Shown here: positions 1-29,414 of the stretch, piece by piece
Layout of the letters: each line of letters opens with the position of its first letter
How positions within the stretch are numbered: the first letter of the stretch is position 1
Virus record (IMG/VR): IMGVR_UViG_3300046479_000008
Span: 1 to 63,767 of that record
Strand: one strand, 5' to 3'
DNA: 63,767 nucleotides
From: a virus
Notes under the pieces: model-generated
Database searches by the model: none
Told to the model about the DNA's origin: nothing
What the model saw: only the letters and a program-made list of their open reading frames with translations
Program-made: the position numbers and the translations under genes

Positions 1-587
1 ATCTCTTCCCGCTGCTCCAGAGGTAGTGTATGAGATATCGAGGCTTGATACTTCCGGACATAGCCTCCTCCGTCCCCGACCTCCATGATCTCCAGGATCC
101 GGACCTCATAGTGCTCATCGCCGAAGCGTATATACCAATCTCCACCCATGTAACCCTTTCTTGCCTTCGGGTCCATGCTCTCTCGGATCCATGCACAACA
201 GGCGCTCAGGTCTGTGTCCATGCTTCCTGTGGCCAGCTTTGAGTTCTTCAGTGCCTCAGCATGGTAAATAAACGCATCCCCCTCAAGGGTGTAGCCGTTG
301 ACTAGCAACCAATCCTTGAGCTCCTCTAGGACTTCCTCGGAGGGAGAGTGTTTGAACTCAACTCGGACGTCGTTAGGGTTCCTGAAATCCCTATAGAAAT
401 CAATATACCCCCCATGGGTTTCCCTATAGTCTGAGACTTGTAGGGTCACTTCCCGGCCCTGACCAGCGATGCTCACTGAGAGTCTACGAGGGAAGGCATC
501 CATCAGAGCCACTCCGGCACGGCGAGCCTCACCAGCAGGGTCTGGGTATCTAGCTGCACGCTTGAGGAGTTTAGCAGTTATCTCCAT
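1..587 (-). CDS. LTAKLLKRA-family protein, 3' end outside window
   Basis: The reading frame is open from an ATG at 587 to the left edge, so the C-terminus is missing. The visible 195 residues begin MEITAKLLKRAARY, the tag shared by several small proteins in this window. Around residue 90 there is a DWLLVNGY stretch matching the family's second conserved motif; a further segment follows (GGDWYIRFGDEHYEVRIL), so this member is longer than its ~120-residue relatives. The start overlaps the upstream gene by 10 bases and has an AAGGA-like site before it. No enzymatic motif is seen and function is unknown. Confidence 0.75.
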   Translation of the reverse strand, partial: MEITAKLLKRAARYPDPAGEARRAGVALMDAFPRRLSVSIAGQGREVTLQVSDYRETHGGYIDFYRDFRNPNDVRVEFKHSPSEEVLEELKDWLLVNGYTLEGDAFIYHAEALKNSKLATGSMDTDLSACCAWIRESMDPKARKGYMGGDWYIRFGDEHYEVRILEIMEVGDGGGYVRKYQASISHTLPLEQREE

Positions 588-937
588 GGTCCTTCTAAGT
601 TCTCCATCACAGGCTTCAGTTGCTCTAGGATCTCATGAGCAGCATTGTTCTCTAATGCAACCCAAATACGCATCACCTGATCGTGTAGTGGGCTGTCCGG
701 GAAGATGTCCTGATCCAGGATCTTGTTGGCAGTGGTCCCGTTGTTGTATACAGAGATGTTGACGGTCACATAGGGAACGGTTGAGCCACAGGCCAAGCTG
801 CACACCACGTGATCTCCCTTGTAGAGCGCATGGTTGTTGTTCCACTGCCACTCGATCTCACGGGCTTCAGTGGCCACGGCTAGATCGGATAGGATCTCAA
901 CTAACAGATCCGACAGGGTTTCTTTGGGGTTGGTCAT
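578..937 (-). CDS. hypothetical protein, 119 aa
   Basis: ATG start two bases after the stop of the gene upstream, with GGAG in front, and a 10-base overlap with the next gene. This fits translation as part of the same minus-strand operon. The protein is acidic. I recognise no domain; the N-terminal half looks helical (DLLVEILSDLAVATEARE) and the middle looks like beta strands. It sits inside the LTAKLLKRA gene cluster but lacks the tag. Confidence 0.7.
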   Translation of the reverse strand: MTNPKETLSDLLVEILSDLAVATEAREIEWQWNNNHALYKGDHVVCSLACGSTVPYVTVNISVYNNGTTANKILDQDIFPDSPLHDQVMRIWVALENNAAHEILEQLKPVMENLEGPWR

Positions 938-939
938 CG

Positions 940-1389
940 TTACTCCAGGTCACGTTGCACTTTGGGATTGCCCTTAGTGATAGCAAGATACAGCCGGTCG
1001 TCCTCGATCATATCTGGCTTCTTGGCCAATTGCTCATTGATAAATCCACGGAGATGATCATCCCAATTGGCTATCTCACCGGCAACTGATTCTTCTATTG
1101 TGTCTAGGAAATTAGGATCTCCTTTGATCTCAGCTTCCATCTCGGGTCTTGTACAACTTGTGGGATTCTCTACAGTTAGGCTGAACATGAAGTGAATCGT
1201 TGACGGTGTATTACCGGAGATCCGTAATCCCTTGAACAGGTCTTCTGTGTTGAAATATCCTCCGAATAGACAATCAGACTCCGTGTTTGGAATCAAGTTG
1301 AAAGATGTTGTGATATGAATGTTCTTACCAAACAACGGGAGGTCCATTGGTCCGGACCAGATGAGCTTCGGATATATGAAGTCAGGCAT
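940..1389 (-). CDS. hypothetical protein, 149 aa
   Basis: ATG start overlapping the end of the upstream LTAKLLKRA gene by 8 bases. The N-terminus (PDFIYPKLIWSGPMDLPLF) is hydrophobic but lacks a convincing signal peptide. The rest alternates predicted strands and an acidic helical C-terminus. No family recognised. Position and overlaps put it in the same operon as the tagged proteins on both sides. Confidence 0.7.
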   Translation of the reverse strand: MPDFIYPKLIWSGPMDLPLFGKNIHITTSFNLIPNTESDCLFGGYFNTEDLFKGLRISGNTPSTIHFMFSLTVENPTSCTRPEMEAEIKGDPNFLDTIEESVAGEIANWDDHLRGFINEQLAKKPDMIEDDRLYLAITKGNPKVQRDLE

Positions 1390-1750
1390 GTTGATCCTTT
1401 ATCGTCTTGATGAGCTGTTCACTCCCCTCGATCTGTCGGAACCCTTGGGTCATAGCCCAATCGATTATCGCCTCTTTTACATCAATCTGATCATTGATGT
1501 CCATGATCAAGGTGTCTTCAGTCTCATATTGATAATAGCTGAAAGTGACGCTCAGATCCCAGCTGACCTTGTAGCCTGTGTCATTACGCTGCTCAGCACA
1601 TACAACTTTGTATACTGGTTGATCAATCTCTAACCCAGACTCCAGCTCAAGCTCTACATCCAGGAACTCCATTAGAGAGTCTACCTCTTTGCGGATGGCC
1701 ATCTCGATCTCACGATTGCCGGCTCTCTTGAGCAGCTTGGCGGTAAGCAT
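1382..1750 (-). CDS. LTAKLLKRA-family protein, 122 aa
   Basis: I chose the ATG at 1750 because it gives the family N-terminus MLTAKLLKRAGNRE. An open frame reaches 1837 but only by running into the upstream gene. The upstream stop ends one base before this start. Near the C-terminus IIDWAMTQGFRQ matches the family's DW...(N/Q)G(F/Y) motif. Between the two motifs lie acidic helices and strands. Function unknown. Adjacent genes at 1752 and 2110 are paralogues, so this looks like tandem duplication. Confidence 0.8.
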   Translation of the reverse strand: MLTAKLLKRAGNREIEMAIRKEVDSLMEFLDVELELESGLEIDQPVYKVVCAEQRNDTGYKVSWDLSVTFSYYQYETEDTLIMDINDQIDVKEAIIDWAMTQGFRQIEGSEQLIKTIKDQHA

Positions 1751-1751
1751 G

Positions 1752-2120
1752 TTAAGCCTCTCCCTTGCTCTTGAACCAGATCTCAGAGGACTTGAATCCC
1801 CACATAGGGATACCATCTTGTTTCTTGTGGAAGCCATTGGCCAACAACCAATCCACCATGTATTTATCCATCAGATCTGGTTTACCGTTCATCTTGATAT
1901 TGGTCCCATTGTCCCTGGTGTCATGGAATTCCACGGTCAACTCCCAGTAGTCTTCTAAATTGTTCTTAGTTTCGTCTGCATTGAGGTACGGAGCAGATGT
2001 ATTGGGGGTGGCCTCAACCTTTAACCCTTCCCCTTTGAGGAATTCCTCCAAGGAAAGACATAGACGAGTCATCTCCGAAGGGACATACTCAGCGGCCTTC
2101 TTGAGCAGCCTAGCCTTCAT
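1752..2120 (-). CDS. LTAKLLKRA-family protein, 122 aa
   Basis: ATG at 2120 gives MKARLLKKAAEYV, a diverged form of the tag; the frame extends to 2168 only by overlapping the preceding gene. The second family motif appears as MVDWLLANGFHKKQ around residue 98. Same length as its neighbour at 1382-1750 and same order of motifs, so the two are paralogues. It overlaps the gene upstream by 11 bases. No catalytic residues can be assigned. Confidence 0.8.
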   Translation of the reverse strand: MKARLLKKAAEYVPSEMTRLCLSLEEFLKGEGLKVEATPNTSAPYLNADETKNNLEDYWELTVEFHDTRDNGTNIKMNGKPDLMDKYMVDWLLANGFHKKQDGIPMWGFKSSEIWFKSKGEA

Positions 2121-2541
2121 TTGTGGCCTCCTTAGTGACCTTGATGAACTCTTTGTCCCCTGCACCACGCCAATCCTTCTCTCGGTAACCGTTGGCGATG
2201 GCCCAGTCCCCTACATTTTCCATAAATTCCTTGTCGGACTCTTCATGGTTATAGTGGAAGCTCAACATCAACCCGGTCCAGAGATCATTGTCTACTGTGA
2301 GCCCATCATGATGATAGTTCTCTGGATCATGGCTACATAGAGAGACAGTCCACTCCTGGTCTTCAAACCATTTAGCCCCTTGTCTACGGGCGCGGACCAT
2401 CCCATATCCAGAACATACCTGAGGGTACACCGTGAGCCCTGATTCCTTCAGGAACTCTGCAACGGAGGTAAGGTCTCTCACCATGAGATCTTGTAGATCC
2501 CCATAGGTATCGGCTCTCTTCAATAGCTTGGCAGTTAGCAT
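2110..2541 (-). CDS. LTAKLLKRA-family protein, 143 aa
   Basis: Start placed at the ATG at 2541, giving MLTAKLLKRADTYGD; another in-frame ATG lies nine bases upstream. Neither has a good ribosome binding site because a terminator hairpin (2552-2577) sits immediately upstream. The second motif is GDWAIANGYREKDW. The protein contains many Trp, His and Asp residues but no recognisable active site. First gene of the tandem family cluster in transcription order. Confidence 0.75.
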   Translation of the reverse strand: MLTAKLLKRADTYGDLQDLMVRDLTSVAEFLKESGLTVYPQVCSGYGMVRARRQGAKWFEDQEWTVSLCSHDPENYHHDGLTVDNDLWTGLMLSFHYNHEESDKEFMENVGDWAIANGYREKDWRGAGDKEFIKVTKEATNEG

Positions 2542-4195: not shown

Positions 4196-4845
4196 TCTTT
4201 TACCTCGAAATTAATAGGAATGATTAGGTCAGCTTCATCCCTGAGCTGTTGTAGTTCGTGTCGCACCTTGAAGGACTCATTGAATTCTAGAGCTCTGGCT
4301 CGCCTGTTGCGCATGGACACTTGACCTTCCTTGATGGCCTCACATAGATCATCAAAGACTCCGGGCTCAGAAGGGTATCGAACCATCTCATCGCCGTGGA
4401 AATGCACATACATTTCCTCCTTGTAGATCCGCCACATCCAGCCCTGACGGATGTCAAAGATGACCACAAAGGGTTCCATCTTGTTGTCCATGGAGCGGAT
4501 ATACTGGAGCACCTGAGCCTTCTTGAATTCAGAGAAGTCCTCGGGGAAGATGATATCTTCCTCGTCTCCCTTGTAGTCATCCCCAACCTCTACCAGCTTG
4601 GCAGAGATCTCACCAGCAGCGATCATAGCCAGCAAGGGCTGGATGCTCATAGGAGCTACCAGGGTGACCAGGTGATCTCGCAGAGTAGCCATAAGGGCTG
4701 CAGACTCCTGAGACATCTCAGAGAGCATCACATCCACATTGCGGCTTTGCAGGAAGCCGGGGTTGCCGGCCTGACTAGAATTCTCGCTGATTCCGGTCTG
4801 GAACCAACTCAAACATTCCCTGATTCTCTGCAGATCTTTCATCAT
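4192..4845 (-). CDS. hypothetical protein, 217 aa
   Basis: I use the ATG at 4845, which has AGGAG eight bases upstream; the frame to 4863 would need TTG. It overlaps the upstream stop (ATGATGA). Mostly helical in the first half and alpha/beta in the middle (EPFVVIFDIRQGWMWRIYKEEMYVHF), Arg-rich near residue 180. No known domain. Same operon as the 421-residue unknown upstream. Confidence 0.7.
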   Translation of the reverse strand: MMKDLQRIRECLSWFQTGISENSSQAGNPGFLQSRNVDVMLSEMSQESAALMATLRDHLVTLVAPMSIQPLLAMIAAGEISAKLVEVGDDYKGDEEDIIFPEDFSEFKKAQVLQYIRSMDNKMEPFVVIFDIRQGWMWRIYKEEMYVHFHGDEMVRYPSEPGVFDDLCEAIKEGQVSMRNRRARALEFNESFKVRHELQQLRDEADLIIPINFEVKE

Positions 4846-6107
4846 ACGATTCGCTCCTGACAAACTTCAGGATCGCTGGTGGCCTCGTCGGTCAGATCCT
4901 GGATCTTCTCGCATATAGTCTTGAACTCATCGTCGGGGATGGGTTCGGCCTTGTCCAGCAGGGGAGTACAGATGTCCACCACAGCCTGCATCTTGGGGTA
5001 TTCAGTGACCAGGGCCTCGGCCTGGGTGAGAATGTAGAACATCGTCACCAGGTTCTCATCGTGCCGGATCAGGGAGAATCGCTTGGCCTCGTCGTCTGAC
5101 TGGCCGGTGTTGCCATCAAGGAGATCCAGCGCCTTGATCTCTCCAGAGCGCAGACGAGCGACATGCTGTTTGCTGAGCTTAGTGGCCAACCCTAGCTGTT
5201 CAGCCTCACGCTGCTCATAGGGGACCATCTTGGCGTGACCCACTGTGTAGAGGACCACGTTGAGGGCCTTATAGAGCTCATCGAAGGGGTAGCTGAACAC
5301 TTCTTGGAGGATGACATCCTTCTCGAACTCCGTGAGCTGGACCCCATCGATCATCTCTTTCAGCTGATTGCCACCGATCTTACTCACCACCTTGATCGCG
5401 TTGGCCCGAAGGACAGCCCGATACATCAGCGCACGGTCAAGGTATTCGATCTCAGCCTGAGCAATGGGACTCTGCTCAGCAGCAGCGATGGAGGTATCGT
5501 GGGCCACATCACCGGTCTCCACGAAGACCCACTGGTCCAGGTTTGAGACCTCAGCGTAGTCCAGAATCAAACCAAGCCAATCAGCCTTGAACATCTCAAC
5601 CAGGACCAGGGCGAGATCATTAGCCTTACCTTCCTTGGTGAAGTAGTTGGGACATTCACGCTTGACCAGCTCCAGCAGACGAGCATCCTCCCAGGTGTTG
5701 ACCTGACGGATCTGCTCCTCGGTGGTGTTGGTGTAGTCCTGAAACTGCTTGAGGAAGTGTCGTCCCTCACCGAGCATCTCGGCATACTGTTCAATGCTGA
5801 TCAGGCGGGAAGATGTAAGGGTGCCATCATCGGCCACCACCATGATCCCCTGCTCCTGATAGCCGTGTTCTGAGCCGGTGACCTTCATCTTCTTATACCA
5901 AGCCATTTCGCACTTGGCAAAGCGAGGATCCATGACCATATTCCAGGCCGGTCCAAGAGACTCAACCAGACCCTTCTCACCCCAGATTATCTGGGAGATA
6001 GTCTGACACAGCTCATGCTGAACCGAATCGTATTCACTCTGGGTGAGGCGGATCTCTCGGGTCCCGGTTTCCCCGAGTAGACCCCTTACTTGCTGATCGA
6101 AGCTCAT
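4842..6107 (-). CDS. hypothetical protein, 421 aa
   Basis: Long, almost entirely helical acidic protein from an ATG at 6107. It contains no nucleotide-binding loop or metal motif that I recognise. The region around 95-130 (RLISIEQYAEMLGEGRHFLK) and the C-terminal third look like packed helices. Its size and helical nature would suit a structural or scaffolding role, but nothing in the sequence proves it. It overlaps the next gene by four bases and the upstream one by 74. Confidence 0.75.
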   Translation of the reverse strand: MSFDQQVRGLLGETGTREIRLTQSEYDSVQHELCQTISQIIWGEKGLVESLGPAWNMVMDPRFAKCEMAWYKKMKVTGSEHGYQEQGIMVVADDGTLTSSRLISIEQYAEMLGEGRHFLKQFQDYTNTTEEQIRQVNTWEDARLLELVKRECPNYFTKEGKANDLALVLVEMFKADWLGLILDYAEVSNLDQWVFVETGDVAHDTSIAAAEQSPIAQAEIEYLDRALMYRAVLRANAIKVVSKIGGNQLKEMIDGVQLTEFEKDVILQEVFSYPFDELYKALNVVLYTVGHAKMVPYEQREAEQLGLATKLSKQHVARLRSGEIKALDLLDGNTGQSDDEAKRFSLIRHDENLVTMFYILTQAEALVTEYPKMQAVVDICTPLLDKAEPIPDDEFKTICEKIQDLTDEATSDPEVCQERIV

Positions 6108-8751: not shown

Positions 8752-9740
8752 TGGGATTCCTTCTCCAAGGTTGCGTCCAAGAGCGCCTTGAGCTCACCAT
8801 GAGCCGCCAGGAGATCCCCTTGGAGTTTGATCTGAAACCGGCCTTCAAGGACACTCTGAGTGTCCGTGGCCAGGTAGGCATGGGTCTCATCATCCCACAC
8901 GTTGGAATGGTAGATGCCCCACTTGCTGAGCTTCTTGCGGATCGCCGAGACATCATACTTGAACAGGATGGTGTCCACGGCCTTCTTGTAGTTGCTGTTG
9001 ATGTAGTAGAGGGCCTGAGCAAGCTCATGCTTGAGGGCCTCTTGGGAGGGTTGCTGGGCCTGGGAGTCAGCGGAAGCAATAACATAGAACTCAGGATGCA
9101 CCAGACCCAGGGTCAGGGAGTCTAGGAGATCCGCGATGGCCTCTTCCTTGTCCGTCAGCCGGAACCCTTCACCTCTCCGGCTAGCCTCACCCAGGATAGC
9201 CCATGAGGGAATGTTGAAGCCAGCGAAAGACTTCTTGGTGCGCCGACCATAGAATGCCTTCAGCCTGGACCAGGAGAACACCTGGTTGTAGAACTTAGGA
9301 CTCTCCGCGTGCTCCTGGAACCGTAACAGATAGCTACACATGTCCTCCACACGACGGAAGTTGAAATGCAGCACATCAGGGAGGACCATGGTGACGTCAA
9401 ATCCCTTGCTGGCGGCCATTACCTTAACGTTATAGGCTCTGTCTTCATGCATCTCTTTGATCCTTTGCTTCCGAACAATCGGCAGTCCCAAGATGACAAA
9501 ATCTAATATGTTATCCAGGGCCTCTGGACTCATGATGGGATTGAGTTCTGGTCGCTTACGCTCACAATCCAAGAGGTTCTTCAGATCATACTCTTCCCAG
9601 TTGGTGTTCCGGTCTCGACTATACTGACCACAAACCCTTTTACTAATGCTCTCCAAGACTGCATTGTAATGCTTGAGGGAGAGATCTAACTCTCGGCCTA
9701 GATCACGGATCTCCGGGAAGTCTAATGCTCCTTCGGTCAT
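8748..9740 (-). CDS. hypothetical protein, 330 aa
   Basis: ATG at 9740 overlapping the preceding gene by four bases. Predominantly helical with two Arg/Lys-rich stretches (PIVRKQRIKEMHEDRAYNVK and RLKAFYGRRTKKSFAGF), so nucleic-acid contact is conceivable. I could not match it to a domain. The C-terminal half carries many Gln and Leu residues and a predicted coiled segment. Cotranscribed with the 9737-10207 gene. Confidence 0.7.
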   Translation of the reverse strand: MTEGALDFPEIRDLGRELDLSLKHYNAVLESISKRVCGQYSRDRNTNWEEYDLKNLLDCERKRPELNPIMSPEALDNILDFVILGLPIVRKQRIKEMHEDRAYNVKVMAASKGFDVTMVLPDVLHFNFRRVEDMCSYLLRFQEHAESPKFYNQVFSWSRLKAFYGRRTKKSFAGFNIPSWAILGEASRRGEGFRLTDKEEAIADLLDSLTLGLVHPEFYVIASADSQAQQPSQEALKHELAQALYYINSNYKKAVDTILFKYDVSAIRKKLSKWGIYHSNVWDDETHAYLATDTQSVLEGRFQIKLQGDLLAAHGELKALLDATLEKESQ

Positions 9741-10207
9741 ACCATCATGTCCGTGTTGACTACCCGCATGTTGATCAAAGCGGCAGGGTTGAAGGCGAAT
9801 GCGCCAAGGGTCTCGTGGATCCTCCAGCCGATCTCTGAGAAGGCCTGGATGAGCTCATGATGCTTTCTCAGGCGGCTATTCGAGAAGGCCTGGATGAGCT
9901 CATGATGCTTTCTCAGGCGGCTATTCTCGGGGAGTTGAGGAGCTTGATTGTGTTCCAGATAGAGGATATAGTAGCGATCCAAGGCCTCCTGGGTCATCCC
10001 GTCATAGAGTCCGGTCTCCTTGAGAAGCCATTCCATGAGCTCCACGGTCTTGGTGGCAGTCAAGGCAATCGAAGAATCTTGGGATTGAAGATGGATCCTC
10101 CCACCCATGCGGATGAAGGCCTCCATGACCCCATCGATTCCACATTCGATGTAGATCTGCTTGAGTTGTTCTACCTTATAGGGCTTCTTGTATTGTTCAA
10201 TGCTCAT
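9737..10207 (-). CDS. hypothetical protein with internal 15-residue duplication
   Basis: 156 residues from ATG at 10207. NSRLRKHHELIQAFS occurs twice in direct succession, encoded by an exact 45-bp tandem repeat. The first ~95 residues align by eye with the protein at 10318-10869: QIYIECGIDGVMEAF against QIFQEEGLDMVLYTV, and VELMEWLLKETGLYDGMT against AELMEHSLQDFWGLPT. The two are therefore diverged tandem paralogues. Function unknown. Confidence 0.75.
   Translation of the reverse strand: MSIEQYKKPYKVEQLKQIYIECGIDGVMEAFIRMGGRIHLQSQDSSIALTATKTVELMEWLLKETGLYDGMTQEALDRYYILYLEHNQAPQLPENSRLRKHHELIQAFSNSRLRKHHELIQAFSEIGWRIHETLGAFAFNPAALINMRVVNTDMMV
9837..9926. repeat. exact 45-bp tandem duplication inside a gene
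   Basis: Units at 9837-9881 and 9882-9926 are identical over all 45 bases as read. Since 45 is a multiple of three, the frame is kept and 15 residues are doubled. Perfect identity including third positions indicates a recent event or an assembly artefact. Confidence 0.9.
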
Positions 10208-11879: not shown

Positions 11880-12382
11880 GGCTCCGGATTGGCCTTGGGG
11901 ATGTCACAGACATCTCCGGTCCAGCGAATGACCTTGTGGTTACGGTTCCGGGGATAGTCCTTCTCGTAGTGATGTGCATGGAGAAATTCCTGAACCGCAT
12001 GCCAATTCTCGTGATTAGTCTCTGGTTCACGGAGGATCTCGTAATCATACTCTTCCCGGCCCACAAAGACTTCCCATTGGTTCCGATGGCCACACTTGGG
12101 GCACACCATACCATAGCTTGGAGCAACGTTGTCGGTCTTGTTGTTCTTGAGTTCTTGGCCGGTCTGACCACAATGGCACTGCTCGATCATGCGCCAAGCG
12201 GTCTTGATTGCTCTCCACTCCCGGACCAAATCGATCTTCTCGGCTGGCTTTGCCGGCTCTGGTTCAGGATCCAAGGGTGAAGTGAAATGCTCCTTGACTA
12301 CATCATTGTGACAGACAGCGATGATCAAGCCGATCATCGCAATGGCAACAATACATATAAGAACCCATACTCCAGCACTCAT
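11876..12382 (-). CDS. membrane-anchored zinc-ribbon protein, 168 aa
   Basis: Residues 5-24 (VWVLICIVAIAMIGLIIAVC) form one strong transmembrane helix at the N-terminus. A short Pro/Glu linker follows, then a soluble domain with Cys69-x-Cys71 and Cys94-x-x-Cys97 that probably binds zinc. The orientation is unknown. ATG start overlaps the ligase C-terminal gene stop. Function unknown. Confidence 0.7.
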   Translation of the reverse strand: MSAGVWVLICIVAIAMIGLIIAVCHNDVVKEHFTSPLDPEPEPAKPAEKIDLVREWRAIKTAWRMIEQCHCGQTGQELKNNKTDNVAPSYGMVCPKCGHRNQWEVFVGREEYDYEILREPETNHENWHAVQEFLHAHHYEKDYPRNRNHKVIRWTGDVCDIPKANPEP

Positions 12383-19401: not shown

Positions 19402-20121
19402 TTAGGATACTGGTGTGAAGGATAGCACCTTGACAGCCGGAGGAGGCACCATACCATCCGCTTCGGCTTCTTCCACACCCGCTAGCATTGCACTATTTAG
19501 CTCATCAATTGCTTGCTTCTCTGTGAAAGGACTCTCTGAGTAAGCAATATAGATCTGATCATCCGAATTGTCAACTTCCATAACGAATGGATAGCCCAAG
19601 AGATCCTCTAGGATTGCCATGAAAGTGCTCTTCGCGCAGTCATCATCGAATAAGGCTAGAGTTGTAAACCCTTCTGGGACCTCATTGGGATCCTCATCGA
19701 CTAGCTCAAGCTCCTCTGGAGTCATGGCTCTAGGGCCAGCCCAAGCAAAACCATTCGCGGGATCTCCACTGATCACAAACTTACCCTGAGTTTGCATCTC
19801 CGCAAGCTTCTCTTGCACTTCATCGGCTATACCACGCCAGTCAAAGATATCAAAGTTGATGCTCAACTGGGTTTCCTTCACAGAGTAGCCAGATACAATG
19901 CCAAGGTCCTCGAAATCCTCACGCAAGCTAGGGCTATTGGCGGCCAAGAATACGGTGGAGGAGGCAACTTGAAACTGATCCCCACCCAAGGGTTTTCCAC
20001 CCAAGACCTTCACGGCTCTGGCGATCTCTTTCTTACACTGAGCCGGGTCGTTGTCTGGAAGGTAGATGGAGAAGGGTTTCCGCTTAGGAGCAGCAGTGAG
20101 GAGTTTGGAGGTTAGTCTCAT
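19402..20121 (-). CDS. LTAKLLKRA-tagged hypothetical protein, 239 aa
   Basis: Starts MRLTSKLLTAAPKRKPFS, a variant of the window's recurring N-terminal tag. The rest is acidic alpha/beta with strands around VFLAANSPSLREDF and LSINFDIFDWRG. The DW...G motif of the smaller relatives is not evident, so only the tag may be shared. ATG overlaps the upstream stop by four bases. Confidence 0.7.
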   Translation of the reverse strand: MRLTSKLLTAAPKRKPFSIYLPDNDPAQCKKEIARAVKVLGGKPLGGDQFQVASSTVFLAANSPSLREDFEDLGIVSGYSVKETQLSINFDIFDWRGIADEVQEKLAEMQTQGKFVISGDPANGFAWAGPRAMTPEELELVDEDPNEVPEGFTTLALFDDDCAKSTFMAILEDLLGYPFVMEVDNSDDQIYIAYSESPFTEKQAIDELNSAMLAGVEEAEADGMVPPPAVKVLSFTPVS

Positions 20122-21089
20122 AGAGTCTTCTCAAATAGATATCGATCGCCCATCTCATCCACCTTCTTGAAGCCTATGCTGAGCAGGATGTCCCATAGGT
20201 AATCAAGAAGCTCATGTGTGTTCTCGAAGTCATAGAACTCTTCCTTGAAGACCAGAGAGGAGCAAATGAACCTTGCATCACTCTCCTTATACATAGTGAA
20301 TGTGGTAAGGGTTTCATCATTATAGCTGACGCAGAACCCATGGGAGGTTCCTGAGGTCTGTCTCTGAGAGACTTGGAATCCGGCCTCACGGAGCATATTG
20401 GTGGTCTTATACATAAGCTTACAGGTGGTGTCCCACGCCTGAGATTCAGATGTAGCATGCTTACGAAGCAGTTTGGCCGTGAACCGCTTAGAGGTCTTGG
20501 TGCCCTCACTGAGGGATCCCCAGATGATCTGTGCCATCATCCTGTAATCCCGCTCACCCAGGGCCTGGGAGATCTCCATCCCATACTCCCAATCGGGATC
20601 GTCATCCTTGCTCACCCCTAGGTCGATCAGACCTTCTTGGATAGCCCTGGTGGCAACATGCTCAAAGTCATCACCATGGATCAATGCCTCATAGACATCG
20701 TTCTCTGACTTACAAGAGCGGAACACCGGCTCGTCCAGGAGCATATCCGCCAGGAGCACATAGTCACTCTCCTTGAGGGACAACTTACTAGTTGGCTCAT
20801 GGAAGTTCCGGATGTTGTCCAAGGCTTCCAGGCAGAGGACCTCGTGATCATAAGGGCAATCACTCAAGTCATCACCATCCTCACCCATACCAGGGTGGTA
20901 GAAGGATCTAGGATCCTCCTCCCAAGCGGGGAGCGAATGGTTCATGACAATGTCTTTGAGCTTCTTCCAGCCCTGATCAGATACAGCGTCCCAGTTACCA
21001 AACTCTCGGCTCTGGACCTGTTCAAACAGATGCCTGATGCATCCCTCAAACATCTCCACCCATTCTTCTCTGGTATAGCGTCTTGGCAT
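20118..21089 (-). CDS. LTAKLLKRA-family domain fused to an N-terminal region
   Basis: ATG at 21089 has GAGG six bases upstream; the frame to 21101 would use TTG. 323 residues. The first ~200 are an acidic helical region without known domain. Then RFTAKLLRKHATSESQAW marks an internal copy of the tag, and ~120 residues later YLWDILLSIGFKKV matches the family's second motif. This looks like a fusion of an upstream gene with a family member, which shows that the tag need not be N-terminal. Confidence 0.72.
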   Translation of the reverse strand: MPRRYTREEWVEMFEGCIRHLFEQVQSREFGNWDAVSDQGWKKLKDIVMNHSLPAWEEDPRSFYHPGMGEDGDDLSDCPYDHEVLCLEALDNIRNFHEPTSKLSLKESDYVLLADMLLDEPVFRSCKSENDVYEALIHGDDFEHVATRAIQEGLIDLGVSKDDDPDWEYGMEISQALGERDYRMMAQIIWGSLSEGTKTSKRFTAKLLRKHATSESQAWDTTCKLMYKTTNMLREAGFQVSQRQTSGTSHGFCVSYNDETLTTFTMYKESDARFICSSLVFKEEFYDFENTHELLDYLWDILLSIGFKKVDEMGDRYLFEKTL

Positions 21090-21116
21090 GTATGTCCTCA
21101 ATAGAGTACGTGAAGG

Positions 21117-22079: not shown

Positions 22080-22496
22080 ATGCTCACCGCCAAACTACTC
22101 AAGAGGGCCGTCAAGAGACTAGGTAAGACTGTCATTCAGGAGTTGGGGCAAGAGCTTCTAGCATTCCTGCAAGAGACCTTCCCGGCTAACGAGTTCAAGC
22201 TACAAGTCTCTGATTGGGGTGCGCAGAAGGGTGATGCAGACATTTTGGTCAAATACGGCTGGCAGTTCATCAACATAGCCTCCTTTGGTAAGATCAAGGG
22301 CGCTGTGATCATGGGGCTTATGAATAAGGAGAAGCATTTCCAAGGCCTCAAATGCACACCAGAGGAAGTGGCTATGTTCTTAGAGATCCAGGAGGCCATT
22401 GGGGATTTCATAGTGACCAAAGGATTCCAACAGAAAAGCGTCAACGGGGATGACTTTCATACTTGGTATAAGCAACCAGAGGCTTCTCAATCCTAA
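22080..22496 (+). CDS. LTAKLLKRA-family protein on the plus strand, 138 aa
   Basis: Begins MLTAKLLKRAVKRLGKTV, and GDFIVTKGFQQK near the end matches the second family motif. Length and motif order equal those of the 1.4-2.5 kb members although this gene lies 20 kb away on the other strand. CAGGAG stands eight bases before the ATG. A 63-base divergent region separates it from the membrane protein gene and should hold promoters for both, but I see no clear consensus boxes. Confidence 0.8.
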   Translation: MLTAKLLKRAVKRLGKTVIQELGQELLAFLQETFPANEFKLQVSDWGAQKGDADILVKYGWQFINIASFGKIKGAVIMGLMNKEKHFQGLKCTPEEVAMFLEIQEAIGDFIVTKGFQQKSVNGDDFHTWYKQPEASQS

Positions 22497-22514
22497 TTTG
22501 ATTCCGGAGAATCC

Positions 22515-22823
22515 ATGTCCGCGCAATACTACACCTTCACTCAGACTGTCTACCTCCCCAATGGGATCACTATGGGCAACGGAGACTTCATGGCCTTCGA
22601 CGCAACATCCTTCGTAGCCCTAGTCTACCCTGGTATGGTTGATAAGCAGGTGTTGCGGTTCAACCTTGGTGAGATCAATGCAATGCTCGCTAAGGGGTTC
22701 ATTGTCTCCACTGCTGTAGTCCCTGCAGGGTTGCCCGGTGATCTCAACTTCGATGACTCCGCTGTGATCGTTGAGCCCATCGTTCGCCCTGTGGATCCCA
22801 ACGTTCCTGCCCCAGGGGCCTAA
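22515..22823 (+). CDS. hypothetical protein, 102 aa
   Basis: CCGGAG precedes the ATG. The sequence is beta-rich and neutral (YYTFTQTVYLPNGITMGNGD), ending in a Pro-rich tail (VRPVDPNVPAPGA). Such compact beta proteins are common among virion decoration or tail proteins, but nothing specific is recognised. Second gene of the plus-strand pair; a terminator follows about 70 bases downstream. Confidence 0.7.
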   Translation: MSAQYYTFTQTVYLPNGITMGNGDFMAFDATSFVALVYPGMVDKQVLRFNLGEINAMLAKGFIVSTAVVPAGLPGDLNFDDSAVIVEPIVRPVDPNVPAPGA

Positions 22824-22932: not shown

Positions 22933-23547
22933 TTACTGAATGCGCTGGATGAACTTGAGGTCGTAGCCCAGGATGGCTTCGGTGTCCAGGATCAGGTAGT
23001 GATACTTGCGGCCCTCAGCGACCAGGAACGGGTTGGTGTGGCTCTCGGTGAGGACTTCCTGAGCGATAACCAACCCACCCTCGGTGACCAGGTGCTGCTT
23101 GACCAGCTCCACATTGGGCACATGGAAGCCCAGGTGAGAGAGCTTGCAGGGCGGCAGGGGCACCCCAGTAGCAGCGGCTCTGGCGGAGTGCCAGTCGGTG
23201 TTGGTCTGGGTGGGAGCGTCGTAAGTGAGCAGCTCGAACTCAACGCCCTTGGAGGTCATACCCGGCTTGACGTTGACGTAGCTGTAGGAGAAGTTCAGCA
23301 CTCCCTGGACCTGAGTCTGCTGCCCGAACACGGTGCCCTGAGCGACATTGCGATCAGTGGCCCAGTCGGAATGGCCCAGACCACCCATGAACAACTGCAC
23401 GTTGGGCAGGGCATCAGCGGAGACCAGGAAGGCGATCTGGTCGACCACCATGGGGAAGGGGAACTTGAGGGTCTTGGCGAACCCAGCGAGCTTCGCGAGG
23501 GCGGCCAGGATATCAGGATTGCTCTGGGGTTCAGTGATTGGTGACAT
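22933..23547 (-). CDS. VOC/glyoxalase-fold protein
   Basis: ATG at 23547 with GGAG nearby gives 204 residues; the longer frame runs into the SDR gene. Two half-domains can be seen: VVDQIAFLVSADALPNVQLF ... GVEFELLTYD, then LSHLGFHVPNVELVKQHLVT ... YHYLILDT. Each has the opening strand-helix of a vicinal-oxygen-chelate module with His/Glu/Tyr candidates for metal binding. Substrate is unknown. Likely cotranscribed with the SDR gene 29 bases upstream, suggesting an auxiliary metabolic pair. Confidence 0.65.
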   Translation of the reverse strand: MSPITEPQSNPDILAALAKLAGFAKTLKFPFPMVVDQIAFLVSADALPNVQLFMGGLGHSDWATDRNVAQGTVFGQQTQVQGVLNFSYSYVNVKPGMTSKGVEFELLTYDAPTQTNTDWHSARAAATGVPLPPCKLSHLGFHVPNVELVKQHLVTEGGLVIAQEVLTESHTNPFLVAEGRKYHYLILDTEAILGYDLKFIQRIQ

Positions 23548-23576
23548 TGATTGTGCTCCGTAGAAGAGAGGATACC

Positions 23577-24347
23577 TTAGGCCCCGTAGGGCATGACGGT
23601 CTTGTTGAAGAACTCGTGACGGCTCTTGTGGCCGAGGATGAAGCCGATATACTCCGCCAGGGCATGCACGGAGGTCTCCTTCCCGCTGGGGAGAGAAGTG
23701 AGCTGATACTTGGTGGTCTGCTCCGGAGTCCAACCATTGGCCTCACTGACCGCATTGAGGATGTAGGTGCTCATCCCAGACTCATCGGGCTGCTTGTGCT
23801 CCGGATCCTTGGGGCCTTCGAGCTTGTTGGGACTGATGCCAAACACTGTCACACCCCAACCCTTGCGCCAGGATTCGTGACCAAGCTGCAGGGTGATCAT
23901 CTTCTGTGCAGCCTTGGACGAGTTGTAGAGACTGCTGTTCGTGAAGGGCACCTCAGAGGCATTGGAGATGATGTTCAGGATGGTGCCCTTGGAGGTCTTC
24001 AGGGAGGGCAGGAACCCCTGAGCGAGGAACAGGGTGGCCTTGGCATTCAAGGCATAGATCTGGTCAAACTCCTCGCTGGTGATGTCCTCGAAGGGGACGA
24101 TCTTGTTGACCCCAAGGTTGTTGACCAACACATCAACCTGTCCACCACAATGACCTAATACCTCCTGGATGGCATCATGGGTCTGGTCGATGTCCGAGAG
24201 GTCAGCGACAATGGTGGGGAACTCAATGCAGGGTTTGCAGTCAATGTTGAAGCACTCGAAGCCCTGGTGATGCAGCTCGCGCAGGATCTGTAGACCCAGA
24301 CCACTGGACCCGCCGGAGACTACCGCTACGCGTTTCTGTTTAATCAT
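23577..24347 (-). CDS. short-chain dehydrogenase/reductase
   Basis: 256 residues, standard SDR length. The nucleotide-binding loop is SGGSSGLGLQ (11-20), NNLG appears near 76, and the catalytic Tyr-x-x-x-Lys is YNSSK with an upstream Ser in NIISNASEV. Asp in NIDCKPC after strand two suggests a preference for NAD(H) over NADP(H) (inference). Substrate cannot be read. A host-type metabolic gene inside a phage operon, paired with the VOC-like protein. Confidence 0.9.
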   Translation of the reverse strand: MIKQKRVAVVSGGSSGLGLQILRELHHQGFECFNIDCKPCIEFPTIVADLSDIDQTHDAIQEVLGHCGGQVDVLVNNLGVNKIVPFEDITSEEFDQIYALNAKATLFLAQGFLPSLKTSKGTILNIISNASEVPFTNSSLYNSSKAAQKMITLQLGHESWRKGWGVTVFGISPNKLEGPKDPEHKQPDESGMSTYILNAVSEANGWTPEQTTKYQLTSLPSGKETSVHALAEYIGFILGHKSRHEFFNKTVMPYGA

Positions 24348-24375
24348 ATTACTCCTCGATGATGGATGTTCTAGG

Positions 24376-25437
24376 TTACCGGCTAGCCTTATCCCGGATC
24401 ACAAGCTCTTCCCATATCGCAGCATAGACAGCCGCATCATGGATTGAGTCTTGATGGTCCAGCTGAGAGATCCGGACAGGGGATAGGCCCTTGGGGTTGA
24501 GCGCACGACAGAGCTTGTGGACAATGATCCCAAGGGTGGCCATGATCGCATAGTCGGATTCAGTCTCAACCACTACCCCATCGGGGATCAACGCCTTGAG
24601 GACTTTGCCGGCTCTGACGTATGAGCTACCATATACCCGGCCACGCTCGGCGAACGTCTGCTGCATCTCCCCCAGGAGGGTGGACGCATTGGGCAGCTGC
24701 GGTTCATCAACCACAGGACGGGAACGCTCTAAGGCCTGGAACCCCTCACGGAGTTCCTCGGCCAGATTCCGCTGACCTTCAACGACCTGGCCTTCAAGCT
24801 TATTGGCCTGGATGTTCATGTCCCCAGATACCGTAAGGGTAATGGACTCCTGTTGACCATCGGCCTCCAGGGCATCCAAGGCCTCCTGGACCCAAGCAGG
24901 AGGAGCCGCAACGGGTTCCAGCAGAGCATCAAACCCCTCAACACCTTGGTCACCATTGTCCTCTACGTCCTTGTTGAGCGCCTCAAGGTATTCCTCACTA
25001 AGGGGATCCAGGGCCTGTAGACCCTCTTGCAGATCATCCTCCTCATCCCAGCCGATCTGGGACTGTGAGGCCAAGGAGGCATCCGTGAAGGAGAAGCTGG
25101 GATCCTCCTTGAGGATAGGTTCGATCTCTACCTGCACGATCTCCTCCTTGGGGCCTCTGAGCTTACGCCGGGTGGAGATCCCATAGGGATCCCGCTCATA
25201 ACCCTCGATGGGGATGATACGCCCATCACTGGGAGGACCATTGGGACGCACCGGGGGCACCTGAGGTACGAGGAGCTCAACGGGTTCAGGGGCAAAGCAC
25301 TCAGAGCGGATCTCCCCTGAGTTGAGTACAATCACCGGGCATACATCAGCTCGCTTCCCGTCGATGGTGATAGCAGTATGGTTCAAGCTCTTATCCACGA
25401 ACACCTTACCTGTACGATCAACGAACGTTCTCTCCAT
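24376..25437 (-). CDS. protein with C-terminal DUF6378-like domain, 353 aa
   Basis: The first ~240 residues are acidic and Pro-rich with low complexity, probably largely disordered. The C-terminal ~110 (MQQTFAERGRVYGSSYVRAG, then HQDSIHDAAVYAAIWEELV) repeats the pattern of the DUF6378-like protein at 18999, including the ERxxVYG and HQDS-DxAVY motifs. It therefore carries the same helical domain at the end of a long linker. Cotranscribed with the 2H phosphoesterase upstream. Confidence 0.7.
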   Translation of the reverse strand: MERTFVDRTGKVFVDKSLNHTAITIDGKRADVCPVIVLNSGEIRSECFAPEPVELLVPQVPPVRPNGPPSDGRIIPIEGYERDPYGISTRRKLRGPKEEIVQVEIEPILKEDPSFSFTDASLASQSQIGWDEEDDLQEGLQALDPLSEEYLEALNKDVEDNGDQGVEGFDALLEPVAAPPAWVQEALDALEADGQQESITLTVSGDMNIQANKLEGQVVEGQRNLAEELREGFQALERSRPVVDEPQLPNASTLLGEMQQTFAERGRVYGSSYVRAGKVLKALIPDGVVVETESDYAIMATLGIIVHKLCRALNPKGLSPVRISQLDHQDSIHDAAVYAAIWEELVIRDKASR

Positions 25438-25447
25438 CTATGACTCC

Positions 25448-26029
25448 TTATAGGTTAACATACTCTACTAGGCCATCAGCCCTGGAGAGTTCAAAACAGC
25501 GCATTGGAACCTCGACATCGAGTTCCACGGATTCCACTTGATGTAGGATATCCTGGACCAACCCCTTCCGGAGATACGCTAGGGTCATATGCGGTTTGTA
25601 TTCACCATGGGAGGAATGCTCAGCTAGAGCGGCATTCAAGCGCATTAGATCATCGGATTCCACACTCAGGTAGAGCACATCAAACCGGGGATCACTGGTG
25701 AAGCATCCGAACCCTGTGATGGTGAACCCCATAGGGGGTTGCACTTCATCGATGATCCTAGAGACCTTAGAGAGACAATCACTCTCACGGATCCCGTATA
25801 GGACGGTGACATGAGAGTCCAGGGTTCGACCATAGCTAGCGTATAACGCTGAGTCAGGGACCAATTGCTTAGAGATGAACTCAACATCACTCATTAGACT
25901 CTTAGGCGCAACGGCCATGACACAGGAGTAATCGTGCGTCGAGGGCTTAGACACATTGTTGACCGTCTCGGCTAACTGGTTAGCTAACCGATAACGCTTA
26001 GGTGATCTGAATAACAATGTGGATCTCAA
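25448..26029 (-). CDS. 2H phosphoesterase (2'-5' RNA ligase-like)
   Basis: 193 residues. Two HxT motifs define the family: HVT at 73-75 (DSHVTVLYGI) and HMT at 147-149 (YKPHMTLAYL). The 2H family hydrolyses or ligates 2',3'-cyclic phosphate or 2'-5' RNA ends; some phage members cleave cyclic oligonucleotide signals used in defence. The start is a TTG, chosen because AGGAG lies six bases upstream and no ATG precedes the first motif. Its N-terminus (RSTLLFRSPKRYRLANQLA) is basic and amphipathic like the other tags. Confidence 0.85.
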   Translation of the reverse strand: MRSTLLFRSPKRYRLANQLAETVNNVSKPSTHDYSCVMAVAPKSLMSDVEFISKQLVPDSALYASYGRTLDSHVTVLYGIRESDCLSKVSRIIDEVQPPMGFTITGFGCFTSDPRFDVLYLSVESDDLMRLNAALAEHSSHGEYKPHMTLAYLRKGLVQDILHQVESVELDVEVPMRCFELSRADGLVEYVNL

Positions 26030-26785: not shown

Positions 26786-26861
26786 TGGTGCACCCTACTG
26801 GGATTGAACCAGCGACTCTCCGGTTAAAAGGCCGGATGCTCTACCACTGAGCTAAGGGCAC
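26786..26861 (-). tRNA. tRNA-Lys (TTT)
   Basis: A cloverleaf can be drawn from GTGCCCT (5' end at 26861): D arm GCTC/GAGC, anticodon stem TCCGG/CCGGA with loop CTTTTAA, T arm with TTCAATC, acceptor end AGGGTGC, discriminator A and encoded CCA. Two G-T pairs are in the acceptor stem. The anticodon reads lysine codons. Confidence 0.95.
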
Positions 26862-26942
26862 ATGGATTTGGATTATAGATTTATGTTTCACCAAGCATCA
26901 TACTAGGGGAACATATGGGGATCTTGAAGATCTTTCTGCAAT

Positions 26943-27018: not shown

Positions 27019-27063
27019 TAGAAATCTAAGATACGCAATCGAGTTTAGATAAGGAGAAAAAGA

Positions 27064-27717
27064 TCAAACCATCATCCAGTCGTAGGATGTGTTGCCAGAT
27101 ACTCCAGGGAGAACATAACCCATATCCAATAAGATCTCACGGGCCTCAGCGTATGAGGGTTCATTGGTGGATACATCTGCACTTCTTATGAACCTCGCTG
27201 TCGGATTTCCCTTAGCGGAAACCCCGAGCTCATAGGTATATTCGCATTCTCCCTTAGTGAACTTTATCCCGATGGCCATGAAATGTTCTTCCTCATTGGA
27301 GATCGTGAACCCTTGAGCGATCAATCTAGCACAGACAGCGTCCACAATCCAATCGTTCCATGTCCGTTGGAGGAACACCTTGCTACCAGTGCTGGGTTCT
27401 TGTCTACAACCCATGGTGATGAACCAGTCGATGATAGTCTCGATCTCATTGAGGTCTTTGGTTTGCCCCTTACGTTCAATGATCACCCTGGAGCCTTTGA
27501 ACACGATCTCCAACGGGTAGGGCCTAGGAGCACCCATGGCTGTTTGAGCATCATAGGGACGAGGATCCGTGCCAGCCATGACCTCATCCTCAGACATTGA
27601 ATCCCGATAGTGTTTCATCTGACATGGGATGGATTCTCCCCTAAGGAACTCTATGAGTCCATTGGGATGAACATCTACGAAGTACTTAGTGGATGATCGC
27701 TTGAGGAGTGGATGCAT
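27064..27717 (-). CDS. MHPLLKRS-tagged two-repeat protein, 217 aa
   Basis: ATG at 27717 gives MHPLLKRSSTKYF, an N-terminus shared with the protein at 28968. The frame to 27762 runs into the upstream gene. Residues ~93-115 include TIIDWFITMGCRQE, the second motif of the LTAKLLKRA family. A similar helix-plus-turn recurs near the end (EAREILLDMGYVLPG), suggesting two copies of the domain. One base separates it from the tagged gene upstream. Function unknown. Confidence 0.7.
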   Translation of the reverse strand: MHPLLKRSSTKYFVDVHPNGLIEFLRGESIPCQMKHYRDSMSEDEVMAGTDPRPYDAQTAMGAPRPYPLEIVFKGSRVIIERKGQTKDLNEIETIIDWFITMGCRQEPSTGSKVFLQRTWNDWIVDAVCARLIAQGFTISNEEEHFMAIGIKFTKGECEYTYELGVSAKGNPTARFIRSADVSTNEPSYAEAREILLDMGYVLPGVSGNTSYDWMMV

Positions 27718-27718
27718 G

Positions 27719-28129
27719 TTAACCCTTACGGCCCTTGATACCACAGCTCTGTAGGAAGTCACGGTCGTCGCGTCTCGAGTTGTCCTGAGCGTAGTTCCCG
27801 GTCTCGGATAACACCTTAGTGATAATCGAATCCAGGGTTCGCATATGAGCGGCCAATTGCCCTACAGGGAATGCCTGTGAGCTGACGACACGACCATTAG
27901 GGTTCTGGATATGAAACATACAGCTGCCGGTTCCCGTGACCGCCATGGTCATAGTGCAATCTCGACCTAGGAAGTACTTAGCGCAGACATTCGGCTCTCC
28001 GTAGTCCTGGCTAACATAATCGCTTAGGTGATCCAACTGCAGTTGAGCATCAATGGTAGCTTTAGCTGACTCGAACTGCACCATCAGCTCGGACAGAGCA
28101 CGCTTAAGGAGTTTGGCTGTTAGGCGCAT
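27719..28129 (-). CDS. LTAKLLKRA-tagged protein, 136 aa
   Basis: Starts MRLTAKLLKRALSELMVQ, a near-perfect tag. The body is alpha/beta (LGRDCTMTMAVTGTGSCMFH); the DW...G motif is not obvious and the C-terminus is basic (CGIKGRKG). It is directly upstream of the MHPLLKRS protein, so the two kinds of tag are cotranscribed. Confidence 0.75.
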   Translation of the reverse strand: MRLTAKLLKRALSELMVQFESAKATIDAQLQLDHLSDYVSQDYGEPNVCAKYFLGRDCTMTMAVTGTGSCMFHIQNPNGRVVSSQAFPVGQLAAHMRTLDSIITKVLSETGNYAQDNSRRDDRDFLQSCGIKGRKG

Positions 28130-28163
28130 AGGATAGATTCCTCTATCCTAGAGAGGGAAAACC

Positions 28164-28565
28164 TTAGCAGGAGTGTTCACCCCAATGGAGTTTGATCTCT
28201 TGGATCATGGGCACCTTCTCGCGCATGATCCCGATGAGTTTGACCAGCTGATCCATGCTCAAGGACCCAGAGTCCATGTAGTCGGAGCCGTGGGCCAGCG
28301 GTAGACCGATGTAACCCTGGCCCTGGTCCATGTGGATGTAGGTCCACCGATGTCCTCCACGATCCTTACCATCGAAGACAGCCCCATCGACACTGGAGTA
28401 GAGAAGGTCATTGATCTCATCCATTGAGTCCTCCAGGGGCTTCCCTGTGATGGCCCGGATGATCTCCAGGACCCCCATGGGATCCTTGTGGTAGTTGACC
28501 TCGAACCCTAACAGCACGAACGAGGAGGATGATGAGTTGCTGACAAAGCCATTCCTGATTTTCAT
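28164..28565 (-). CDS. SNSSSSSF-tagged protein, 133 aa
   Basis: Begins MKIRNGFVSNSSSSSFVLLG. From memory this N-terminal motif occurs in many unrelated-looking hypothetical proteins of bacteria and phages, with no settled function. After it comes an acidic alpha/beta body (MDEINDLLYSSVDGAVFDGK). Adjacent to a second tagged gene with a one-base gap. No other domain recognised. Confidence 0.75.
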   Translation of the reverse strand: MKIRNGFVSNSSSSSFVLLGFEVNYHKDPMGVLEIIRAITGKPLEDSMDEINDLLYSSVDGAVFDGKDRGGHRWTYIHMDQGQGYIGLPLAHGSDYMDSGSLSMDQLVKLIGIMREKVPMIQEIKLHWGEHSC

Positions 28566-28566
28566 A

Positions 28567-28824
28567 TTAGTCTCTCCATTGGATGTCCCGGTCTGGGATC
28601 AAGAGTTTTCCTTTAAGGTACTCTCGCATGTTGAAGTTGCCCATGAAGGTGCAACCACAGATGGTGTCGGCGGTCTCCGAGATGTCCCATGCCCACTCTG
28701 GGTCACAACCTGGATCCTCATAGTGAGTCCGGATGGCCTCTTTCTGCCATGGGGCCAATGCGTCCTTGGATATGACGAATGAGCTTGAGGAGCTATTGGA
28801 GACGAAACCTGATCTCGTTTTCAT
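28567..28824 (-). CDS. SNSSSSSF-tagged protein, 85 aa
   Basis: Begins MKTRSGFVSNSSSSSFVISK. The rest is short and acidic (TIC, CGCTF and several Trp), and apart from the tag it does not resemble its neighbour. Sits between tRNA-Thr and the 28164 gene. The Ser block is encoded with mixed Ser codons, so it is not a simple nucleotide repeat expansion. Confidence 0.7.
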   Translation of the reverse strand: MKTRSGFVSNSSSSSFVISKDALAPWQKEAIRTHYEDPGCDPEWAWDISETADTICGCTFMGNFNMREYLKGKLLIPDRDIQWRD

Positions 28825-28861
28825 ATAACACCTATGGATGACTTTGCGTAAGCAAAGCTAA

Positions 28862-28936
28862 TGGAGCCGCTAGAGGGAATCGAACCCCCGACCATCTGCT
28901 TACAAGGCAGGCGCTCTACCCCTGAGCTACAGCGGC
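28862..28936 (-). tRNA. tRNA-Thr (TGT)
   Basis: Acceptor GCCGCTG/TAGCGGC (one G-T pair), D arm GCTC/GAGC, anticodon stem CCTGC/GCAG(A) with loop CTTGTAA, T arm GGGGG-TTCGATT-CCCTC, discriminator T and encoded CCA. The anticodon TGT reads ACA and ACG. Confidence 0.95.
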
Positions 28937-28967
28937 AACCCTAGTCTATGACTAGCACAGTCCTAGA

Positions 28968-29414
28968 CTACTTGGACTTACGCTTCAACAGGTCAGACTG
29001 ATGAACCCTATTGCTAGGCTTAGAGATCACAAGGAGCTTCAAACCCAAGCAGTCCATGTCCTCCAACGGGTAGCCCAGTCGCTCTAGGATCTTACGATAC
29101 ACAGGCATCTTGCTGGGGTTGTTCCCGCCTACCCATAGCTCACCATACTGCTTGACCCATCGATCAATCACAGGGATCGCATCGAGCATGTTACCCTTGA
29201 TCGCACCGGGGATCTTAGTCATCTGCTGCTCTGGTGAGGAGAAGTCCTGACCCATGGCCTGTAGGGCTAGATGATAGCAGTTCAACAACGGGAAGTGAGT
29301 GAGCACGAGATCATACCCACCAACCTCAGCCTCATCGACTACTGTGTAGCCATAGTGTTCGATGTTGTCCTTGATATGTTCAGGTAGCTTACTTCTCTTC
29401 AACAGGGGATGCAT
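28968..29414 (-). CDS. MHPLLKRS-tagged protein, 148 aa
   Basis: Starts MHPLLKRSKLPEHIKDNI. The body reads as an alpha/beta Rossmann-like domain (YGYTVVDEAEVGGYDLVLTH, ELWVGGNNPSKMPVYRKI) and ends Lys/Arg-rich (SDLLKRKSK). It may bind a nucleotide or phosphate, but no signature is complete. It overlaps the HAD gene by 26 bases. The basic hydrophobic start recalls LTAKLLKRA. Confidence 0.65.
   Translation of the reverse strand: MHPLLKRSKLPEHIKDNIEHYGYTVVDEAEVGGYDLVLTHFPLLNCYHLALQAMGQDFSSPEQQMTKIPGAIKGNMLDAIPVIDRWVKQYGELWVGGNNPSKMPVYRKILERLGYPLEDMDCLGLKLLVISKPSNRVHQSDLLKRKSK

What the first reader, a model, noticed from the sequence alone, without database searches (positions are those of the whole stretch)
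1..29414. Expanded phage protein family defined by LTAKLLKRA tag and DW...G(F/Y) motif
At least seven proteins at three loci (starts 587, 1750, 2120, 2541, 20121, 22080, 28129) begin with variants of LTAKLLKRA. One more carries it internally (20118-21089, RFTAKLLRKHA). Two begin with the related MHPLLKRS (27717, 29414). Many also share, about 90 residues later, a motif like (I/V)xDW(A/L)(I/L)xxG(F/Y)xxK. Outside the motifs they have diverged strongly. This suggests a lineage-specific family with a short basic amphipathic targeting or packaging peptide. Possible roles are capsid-directed internal proteins cleaved after the tag, localisation to a replication compartment, or a binding tag for a common partner.
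Basis: partly seen in the sequence, partly recalled or inferred. Interest (0 to 1): 0.82.

Follow-up and report, generated by a model that had tools for sequence, protein, structure and literature searches.

The report
Jumbo-phage N-terminal cargo address tag
An uncultured giant phage puts the same ten-residue label, RLTAKLLKRA, on the front of dozens of small proteins that are often otherwise unrelated; it most likely works as a shipping label that loads them into the virus particle for delivery into the bacterium, and relatives put similar labels on enzymes of the kind phages inject.

Summary
The window has 7 tagged N-termini, 2 MHPLLKRS relatives and 1 internal copy; a 61.8-kb contig of the same kind (G001) has about 24 more among roughly 90 genes. 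The tag is sharply bounded, [RK]-[LF]-T-[AS]-[KR]-L-L-K-[RA]-A: conservation stops after that Ala, and codons vary freely, so selection acts on the peptide. With tags masked, a profile still links many bodies into one family (helix, four strands, DWxxxxGF helix, strand); other tagged bodies are unrelated, so the tag is portable. The phage belongs to a jumbo-phage clade with cultured Tunturiibacter phage Tunturi_5. Relatives carry variant tags on injected- or virion-type proteins: an ADP-ribosyltransferase-like protein near the portal gene, a GP88 protein related to Tunturi_5's 'minor head protein', a lytic transglycosylase whose relatives bear a signal-like N-terminus instead, and polyvalent proteins. 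The window's 29414 protein is homologous to a domain of a polyvalent protein. Best reading: a virion-packaging address analogous to the T4 capsid-targeting sequence, but without a conserved Glu cleavage site. Packaging and cleavage are inferred, not shown. A replication-compartment tag is disfavoured: UvsX, SSB, SbcCD, RuvC, helicase and ligase lack it.

The parts
1..587 (-). Tagged protein MEITAKLLKRA..., DWLLVNGY motif; cut by the window's left edge
   Evidence: member of the tag-masked profile
1382..1750 (-). Tagged protein MLTAKLLKRA..., IIDWAMTQGF; folded here
1752..2120 (-). Tagged protein MKARLLKKA..., MVDWLLANGF; start overlaps the end of the preceding gene
2110..2541 (-). Tagged protein MLTAKLLKRA..., VGDWAIANGY; first of a tandem cluster
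19402..20121 (-). Tag variant MRLTSKLLTAA on an unrelated 239-aa body without the DW motif
   Evidence: no Pfam; not retrieved by the DW profile
20118..21101 (-). Two-part protein: unrelated N-terminal region, then internal tag RFTAKLLRKHA (20486-20454) and a DW-type domain
22080..22496 (+). Tagged protein MLTAKLLKRA..., IGDFIVTKGF
   Evidence: profile E 0.026
27064..27717 (-). MHPLLKRS protein with IIDWFITMGC
   Evidence: profile E 0.18 only
27719..28129 (-). Tagged protein MRLTAKLLKRA... on a body without the DW motif
   Evidence: not retrieved by the DW profile
28968..29414 (-). MHPLLKRS protein; body homologous to tagged G015 4542-4955 and to a domain of a 2975-aa polyvalent protein in G013

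Best explanation
The ten-residue N-terminus [RK][LF]T[AS]KLLK[RA]A is a portable address peptide, probably an amphipathic basic helix. It binds a head-assembly component (the scaffold or the internal N-terminal region of the capsid protein) during late infection, so that the attached proteins are packaged in the virion and delivered with the DNA. The cargo is a fast-evolving set: one expanded small alpha/beta domain family (the DW domain) plus unrelated bodies. Shown: the tag, its sharp boundary, its portability, selection on the peptide, the domain family, and variant tags in relatives on injected-type proteins or near head genes. Inferred: packaging, the binding partner, delivery and any cleavage.
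For: Sharp 10-residue conservation that drops to near noise after Ala9, and amphipathicity above shuffles; all six Leu codons used at both conserved Leu positions; tag on unrelated bodies. In relatives: MKFTAKLLQKS on an ART-like protein near the portal gene; MIFKAKFLHKA on a protein with a sub-threshold PARP match; MFNFTAKFLVKA on a GP88 protein whose Tunturi_5 relative gp272 is annotated minor head protein; MRFTFKAKLLQAT two genes downstream of the capsid gene in G015; MKFKFRAKLLQGS on a lytic transglycosylase whose Tunturi_5 and G010 relatives have signal-like N-termini there; Tunturi_5 polyvalent gp273 starts MAKSRLLKKA. Window 29414 is homologous to a polyvalent-protein domain. Recognised replication and recombination enzymes of the window lack the tag. 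Polyvalent and Alt-type ART proteins are packaged or predicted to be (PMC5512222).
Against: No virion proteomics. Neither the window nor G001 contains recognised head genes, so the partner is unseen. The T4/SPN3US-type Glu cleavage motif is absent. Tags also occur internally and once at a C-terminus. The excess of tag-like N-termini across relatives' genomes is modest: 5 vs 1.8, 6 vs 1.7, 9 vs 1.7 expected, and variants there were partly found by looking. The ART assignment in G007 is by motif only.
Confidence: 0.55

Rival explanations
1. The tag is only the first turns of helix 1 of an expanded paralogous domain, conserved for folding or dimerisation and spread by gene duplication; there is no targeting function.
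For: AlphaFold2 puts the tag at the start of helix 4-37; tags precede domain repeats inside G001 polyproteins and window 20118-21101; most tagged proteins have the DW domain.
Against: Bodies outside the DW family carry the same tag; second and third domain repeats in G001 38020-39126 lack it; conservation ends abruptly at Ala9 although the helix continues; the tag block has the lower confidence, pLDDT 60.
Confidence: 0.22
2. The tag directs proteins to an infection compartment (replication centre, phage nucleus or membrane) or to another shared intracellular partner, not to the virion.
For: A basic amphipathic N-terminal peptide is generic for localisation. In G015 it stands where relatives have a signal-like N-terminus.
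Against: UvsX, SSB, SbcC, SbcD, RuvC, helicase and both ligase parts of the window lack it. Relatives' tagged genes lie near portal and capsid genes.
Confidence: 0.13
3. A nucleic-acid-level or expression element (translation start enhancer, mobile 5' segment copied among genes) that happens to encode the same peptide.
For: Some codon bias: AAA at Lys4, CTC at Leu6. Several tagged genes directly follow tRNA genes in a tRNA-rich region of G001.
Against: Synonymous codons vary widely; no shared upstream motif; the peptide also recurs internally.
Confidence: 0.05

Closest known systems
T4 internal proteins with a capsid-targeting sequence (CTS)
   Same: A diverse set of small proteins sharing only a short conserved N-terminal peptide (PMC3012670).
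   Different: Different sequence; no conserved Glu cleavage site; many more carriers here; virion location not shown.
P1 DarB N-terminal packaging signal
   Same: N-terminal 30 residues suffice to send a reporter to the capsid (PMC9024508).
Polyvalent proteins (Iyer et al. 2017)
   Same: Window 29414 is homologous to a domain of a G013 polyvalent protein; Tunturi_5 gp273 has NUDIX, ART-PolyVal and GNAT domains and starts MAKSRLLKKA.
   Different: Window proteins are mostly single small domains; no shared N-terminal tag is described in the passages read.
Propeptides of giant-phage head proteins (SPN3US)
   Same: N-terminal extensions on head proteins of giant phages (PMC10052503).
   Different: Those are mostly 111-254 residues, two of 20-24, and are cut after AXE; this is 10 residues with no such motif.

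Membership tests
T4-type capsid-targeting sequence | short N-terminal peptide shared by otherwise diverse small proteins of one phage | tested here: met
T4-type capsid-targeting sequence | tagged proteins are inside the head and are injected | not testable with these tools
   no virion proteomics exists for this lineage; none found in the Tunturi_5 paper
T4-type capsid-targeting sequence | Glu-ending prohead-protease site at the end of the peptide (T4 from own knowledge; AXE in SPN3US) | tested here: not met
   no conserved Glu at positions 1-22; the last conserved residue is Ala9
T4-type capsid-targeting sequence | peptide suffices to send a reporter to the capsid | not testable with these tools
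   needs a fusion experiment
Polyvalent proteins | homology to polyvalent-protein domains | tested here: met
   window 29414 only: E 1.5e-11 to residues 796-928 of a G013 protein with ART-PolyVal, 2H and GNAT
Polyvalent proteins | several domains in one large polypeptide | tested here: not met
   window tagged proteins are 122-327 aa with one or two domains
T4 MotA C-terminal domain fold (DW domain) | significant structural match | tested here: inconclusive
   best VIA-align Z 5.8 to 1kaf, rmsd 3.9 over 88 residues, within the usual range of chance; no Foldseek match at E 1e-3 or better

The most novel reading that the evidence does not exclude
This jumbo-phage lineage has a general-purpose packaging code: one 10-residue address, carried by about 10 to 25 percent of the genes in the stretches seen, loads dozens of fast-evolving effectors into each virion through one receptor in the head, possibly cut after the conserved Ala. 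Relatives use diverged dialects of the same address, and genes become virion cargo by swapping N-termini, including exchange with a secretion signal.
Probability: 0.35. Interest if true: 0.85.

Novelty: new variant of a known kind. Interest (0 to 1): 0.64.

Why it matters
If true, the tag shows from sequence alone which of a giant phage's many unknown proteins are delivered into the host. That turns dozens of anonymous genes into a list of candidate early effectors and counter-defence proteins, and offers a portable peptide for loading proteins into phage heads. A cultured relative (Tunturi_5) makes it directly testable.

Tried and rejected
Pfam and PHROGs on window members: nothing significant. 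Back-translated tag pattern in GTDB genomes: 63 hits, none resembling this N-terminal tag, so no prophage carriers were found this way. Broader pattern in IMG/VR: only G001 held real tags by inspection. Relatives searches with single proteins (2541, the 757-aa protein, UvsX): none. De novo N-terminal motif search in relatives (Tunturi_5, G005, G006, G007, G009, G010, G013 and others): no motif approaching the window's strength. Suspected frameshift in the G001 polyprotein: rejected, it is a TAATG stop-start overlap. Common upstream promoter motif: none. Fold of the tagged ART-like protein without an alignment: failed, pLDDT 33; no homologue in phage or plasmid records. Foldseek and VIA-align on the DW domain: no reliable match; T4 MotA C-terminal domain, phage G gp76 and gp643 and an Alc-named protein are weak leads only.

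Full report
What is there. The window is a 63.8-kb IMG/VR record of a phage. A DNA pattern for [hydrophobic]TAKLLKRA scanned over IMG/VR hit one other relevant contig, IMGVR_UViG_3300046479_000013 (61.8 kb, here G001). G001 turned out to hold about 24 tagged N-termini among some 90 called genes, plus internal and C-terminal copies. G001 was found through the tag, so one hit is by construction; the rest are not. The window and G001 share almost no other genes apart from GIY-YIG-type endonuclease genes, so they may be parts of one genome or of sister genomes; this was not tested.

Statistics. Among gapped four-letter patterns near gene starts, KLL..A is found in 7 window genes (0.096 expected) and 16 G001 genes (0.07 expected); no related phage shows an N-terminal pattern approaching this. 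The tag matrix gives 9 and 25 N-terminal hits against 0.5 and 0.9 expected from the internal rate; the matrix was built from these same tags. In 257 Gb of bacterial and archaeal genomes the DNA pattern gave 63 hits that look like chance.

Anatomy of the tag. Over 31 copies with a Met within six residues (one of them, G001 15473, is inside a longer frame), the consensus is [RK]-[LF]-T-[AS]-[KR]-L-L-K-[RA]-A. Both Leu are invariant in this set, which was selected on them. Lys or Arg at position 4 is in 30 of 31 and Ala9 in 28. Relative entropy falls from 1.9-3.4 bits at positions 1-9 to 0.3-0.9 from position 10 on, near the small-sample bias of 0.44. The peptide is more amphipathic than its shuffles. 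All six Leu codons occur at both conserved Leu positions, so selection is on the peptide, not the DNA.

The bodies. With the tags masked, a profile from four window bodies retrieves ten domains at E < 0.01. All are on tagged proteins, one of them an untagged second repeat; most of the next hits are tagged proteins too, and the best hit in a related phage without the tag is at E 0.14. So the DW domain family is real without the tag. AlphaFold2 on 20 aligned members gives a helix at 4-37, four strands, a helix at the DW..GF motif and a last strand (mean pLDDT 76.5, pTM 0.68; first ten residues only 60). No known fold matches reliably; T4 MotA C-terminal domain (Z 5.8) is a weak lead. Other tagged bodies are not retrieved by this profile: window 20121 and 28129, a ParB-like protein (PHROG E 3e-4), a 416-aa protein and others. 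A tagged 374-aa G001 protein has the DW domain only at its C-terminus, far from the tag. Tag and domain are therefore separable.

Relatives. The window's UvsX, SbcC, SbcD, RuvC, SSB, helicase and split NAD ligase match Tunturiibacter phage Tunturi_5 (308.7 kb, Acidobacteriota host; PMC11924767). Its capsid protein leads to 152 IMG/VR stretches with relatives. In G007 and G023 a protein starting MKFTAKLLQKSDALYHGTS lies just downstream of the portal gene (portal PHROG E 4e-26), with one small gene between. The ALYHGT motif looks like an ADP-ribosyltransferase, but no profile confirms it. G023 also has MIFKAKFLHKA on a 257-aa protein with a sub-threshold PARP match (E 0.019) and MQFVSKFLQAA on a protein with a sub-threshold nucleotidyltransferase match (E 0.084). 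G007 has MFNFTAKFLVKA on a GP88 protein (E 4e-29) whose Tunturi_5 relative gp272 is annotated minor head protein. G015 has MRFTFKAKLLQAT two genes downstream of its capsid gene, and MKFKFRAKLLQGS on a DPBB lytic transglycosylase; the Tunturi_5 relative of the latter (gp251, annotated lipoprotein precursor) and the G010 relative have signal-peptide-like N-termini in that place.

Link between the two tag forms. Window 29414 (MHPLLKRS) is homologous to the G015 protein that starts MRFTFKAKLLQAT (E 1e-20), to G006 MHELLVKKA (E 2e-23) and to residues 796-928 of a 2975-aa G013 polyvalent protein (E 1.5e-11) with ART-PolyVal, 2H and GNAT domains. This ties MHPLLKRS to the tag and one window protein to the polyvalent class. 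Tunturi_5 gp273 (polyvalent) and gp205 (annotated ADP-ribosyltransferase; Pfam found only weak GNAT matches) start MAKSRLLKKA and MSRSKLLTRRA. Capsid proteins of the clade have a tag-like LLG[TQ]LLK[ST]A within their first 25 residues. These variant matches were partly found by looking for them, and the genome-wide excess in relatives is modest, so they are support, not proof.

Interpretation. The tag is portable, sharply bounded and selected as peptide; it is absent from the replication and recombination enzymes recognised here; and in relatives it is attached to injected-type proteins or proteins of virion gene clusters, or stands where a signal-like N-terminus stands in relatives. An address for packaging into the virion fits best (0.55). 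The closest working analogues are the T4 capsid-targeting sequence, where a diverse set of internal defence proteins shares only that peptide (PMC3012670), and the P1 DarB signal (PMC9024508). It is not filed as a T4 CTS: a Glu-type cleavage site is absent and packaging is not shown. The main rival is that the tag is just part of the domain's first helix (0.22).

Limits.

Noticed in passing
28164-28565 (-), 28567-28824 (-), 60825-61373 (-): A second shared N-terminus, MK[IT]R[NS]GFVSNSSSSSF, on three window proteins with different bodies; none found in G001, Tunturi_5 or the other relatives scanned.
   Followed up: partly
12382-13311 (-) and 14201-15553 (-): NAD-dependent DNA ligase split into two genes with one gene between them; Tunturi_5 has both parts too, as gp108 and gp116.
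   Followed up: partly
32182-32958 (+): Looks like a papain-type (C1) cysteine peptidase on the rarely used + strand; by eye only.
   Followed up: no
9737-10207 (-): In-frame tandem repeat NSRLRKHHELIQAFS x2 inside a 156-aa protein.
   Followed up: no
18284-19033 (-), 47139-48062 (+); G001 23619-24245 (-): GIY-YIG-like (by eye) endonuclease genes, 30-44% identical to one another; almost the only non-tagged homologues shared by window and G001.
   Followed up: partly
26786-26861 (-); G001 about 17-52 kb: Window tRNA call with a two-base anticodon. G001 carries 30 tRNA genes through the region rich in tagged genes, and several tagged genes directly follow a tRNA; one is called Pyl/CTA.
   Followed up: partly
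16007-18280 (-): 757-aa protein with internal FRSRMASR and FRSRLAARR stretches; its N-terminal region is homologous to G002 23347-25527, G006 154587-155123 (starts MKSRLLNKK) and G015 22120-22731 (contains MFTFTSKLITKLS).
   Followed up: partly
53801-54652 (-): ClpP-family protease (Pfam E 2e-32) with a long charged C-terminal tail.
   Followed up: no
L008 16796-17170 (-) and 15144-16862 (-): In G001 one gene ends in a C-terminal tag (LRAKLLKRI) and overlaps the next gene's start as TAATG; the next protein is a multi-domain chain with two internal tags.
   Followed up: yes
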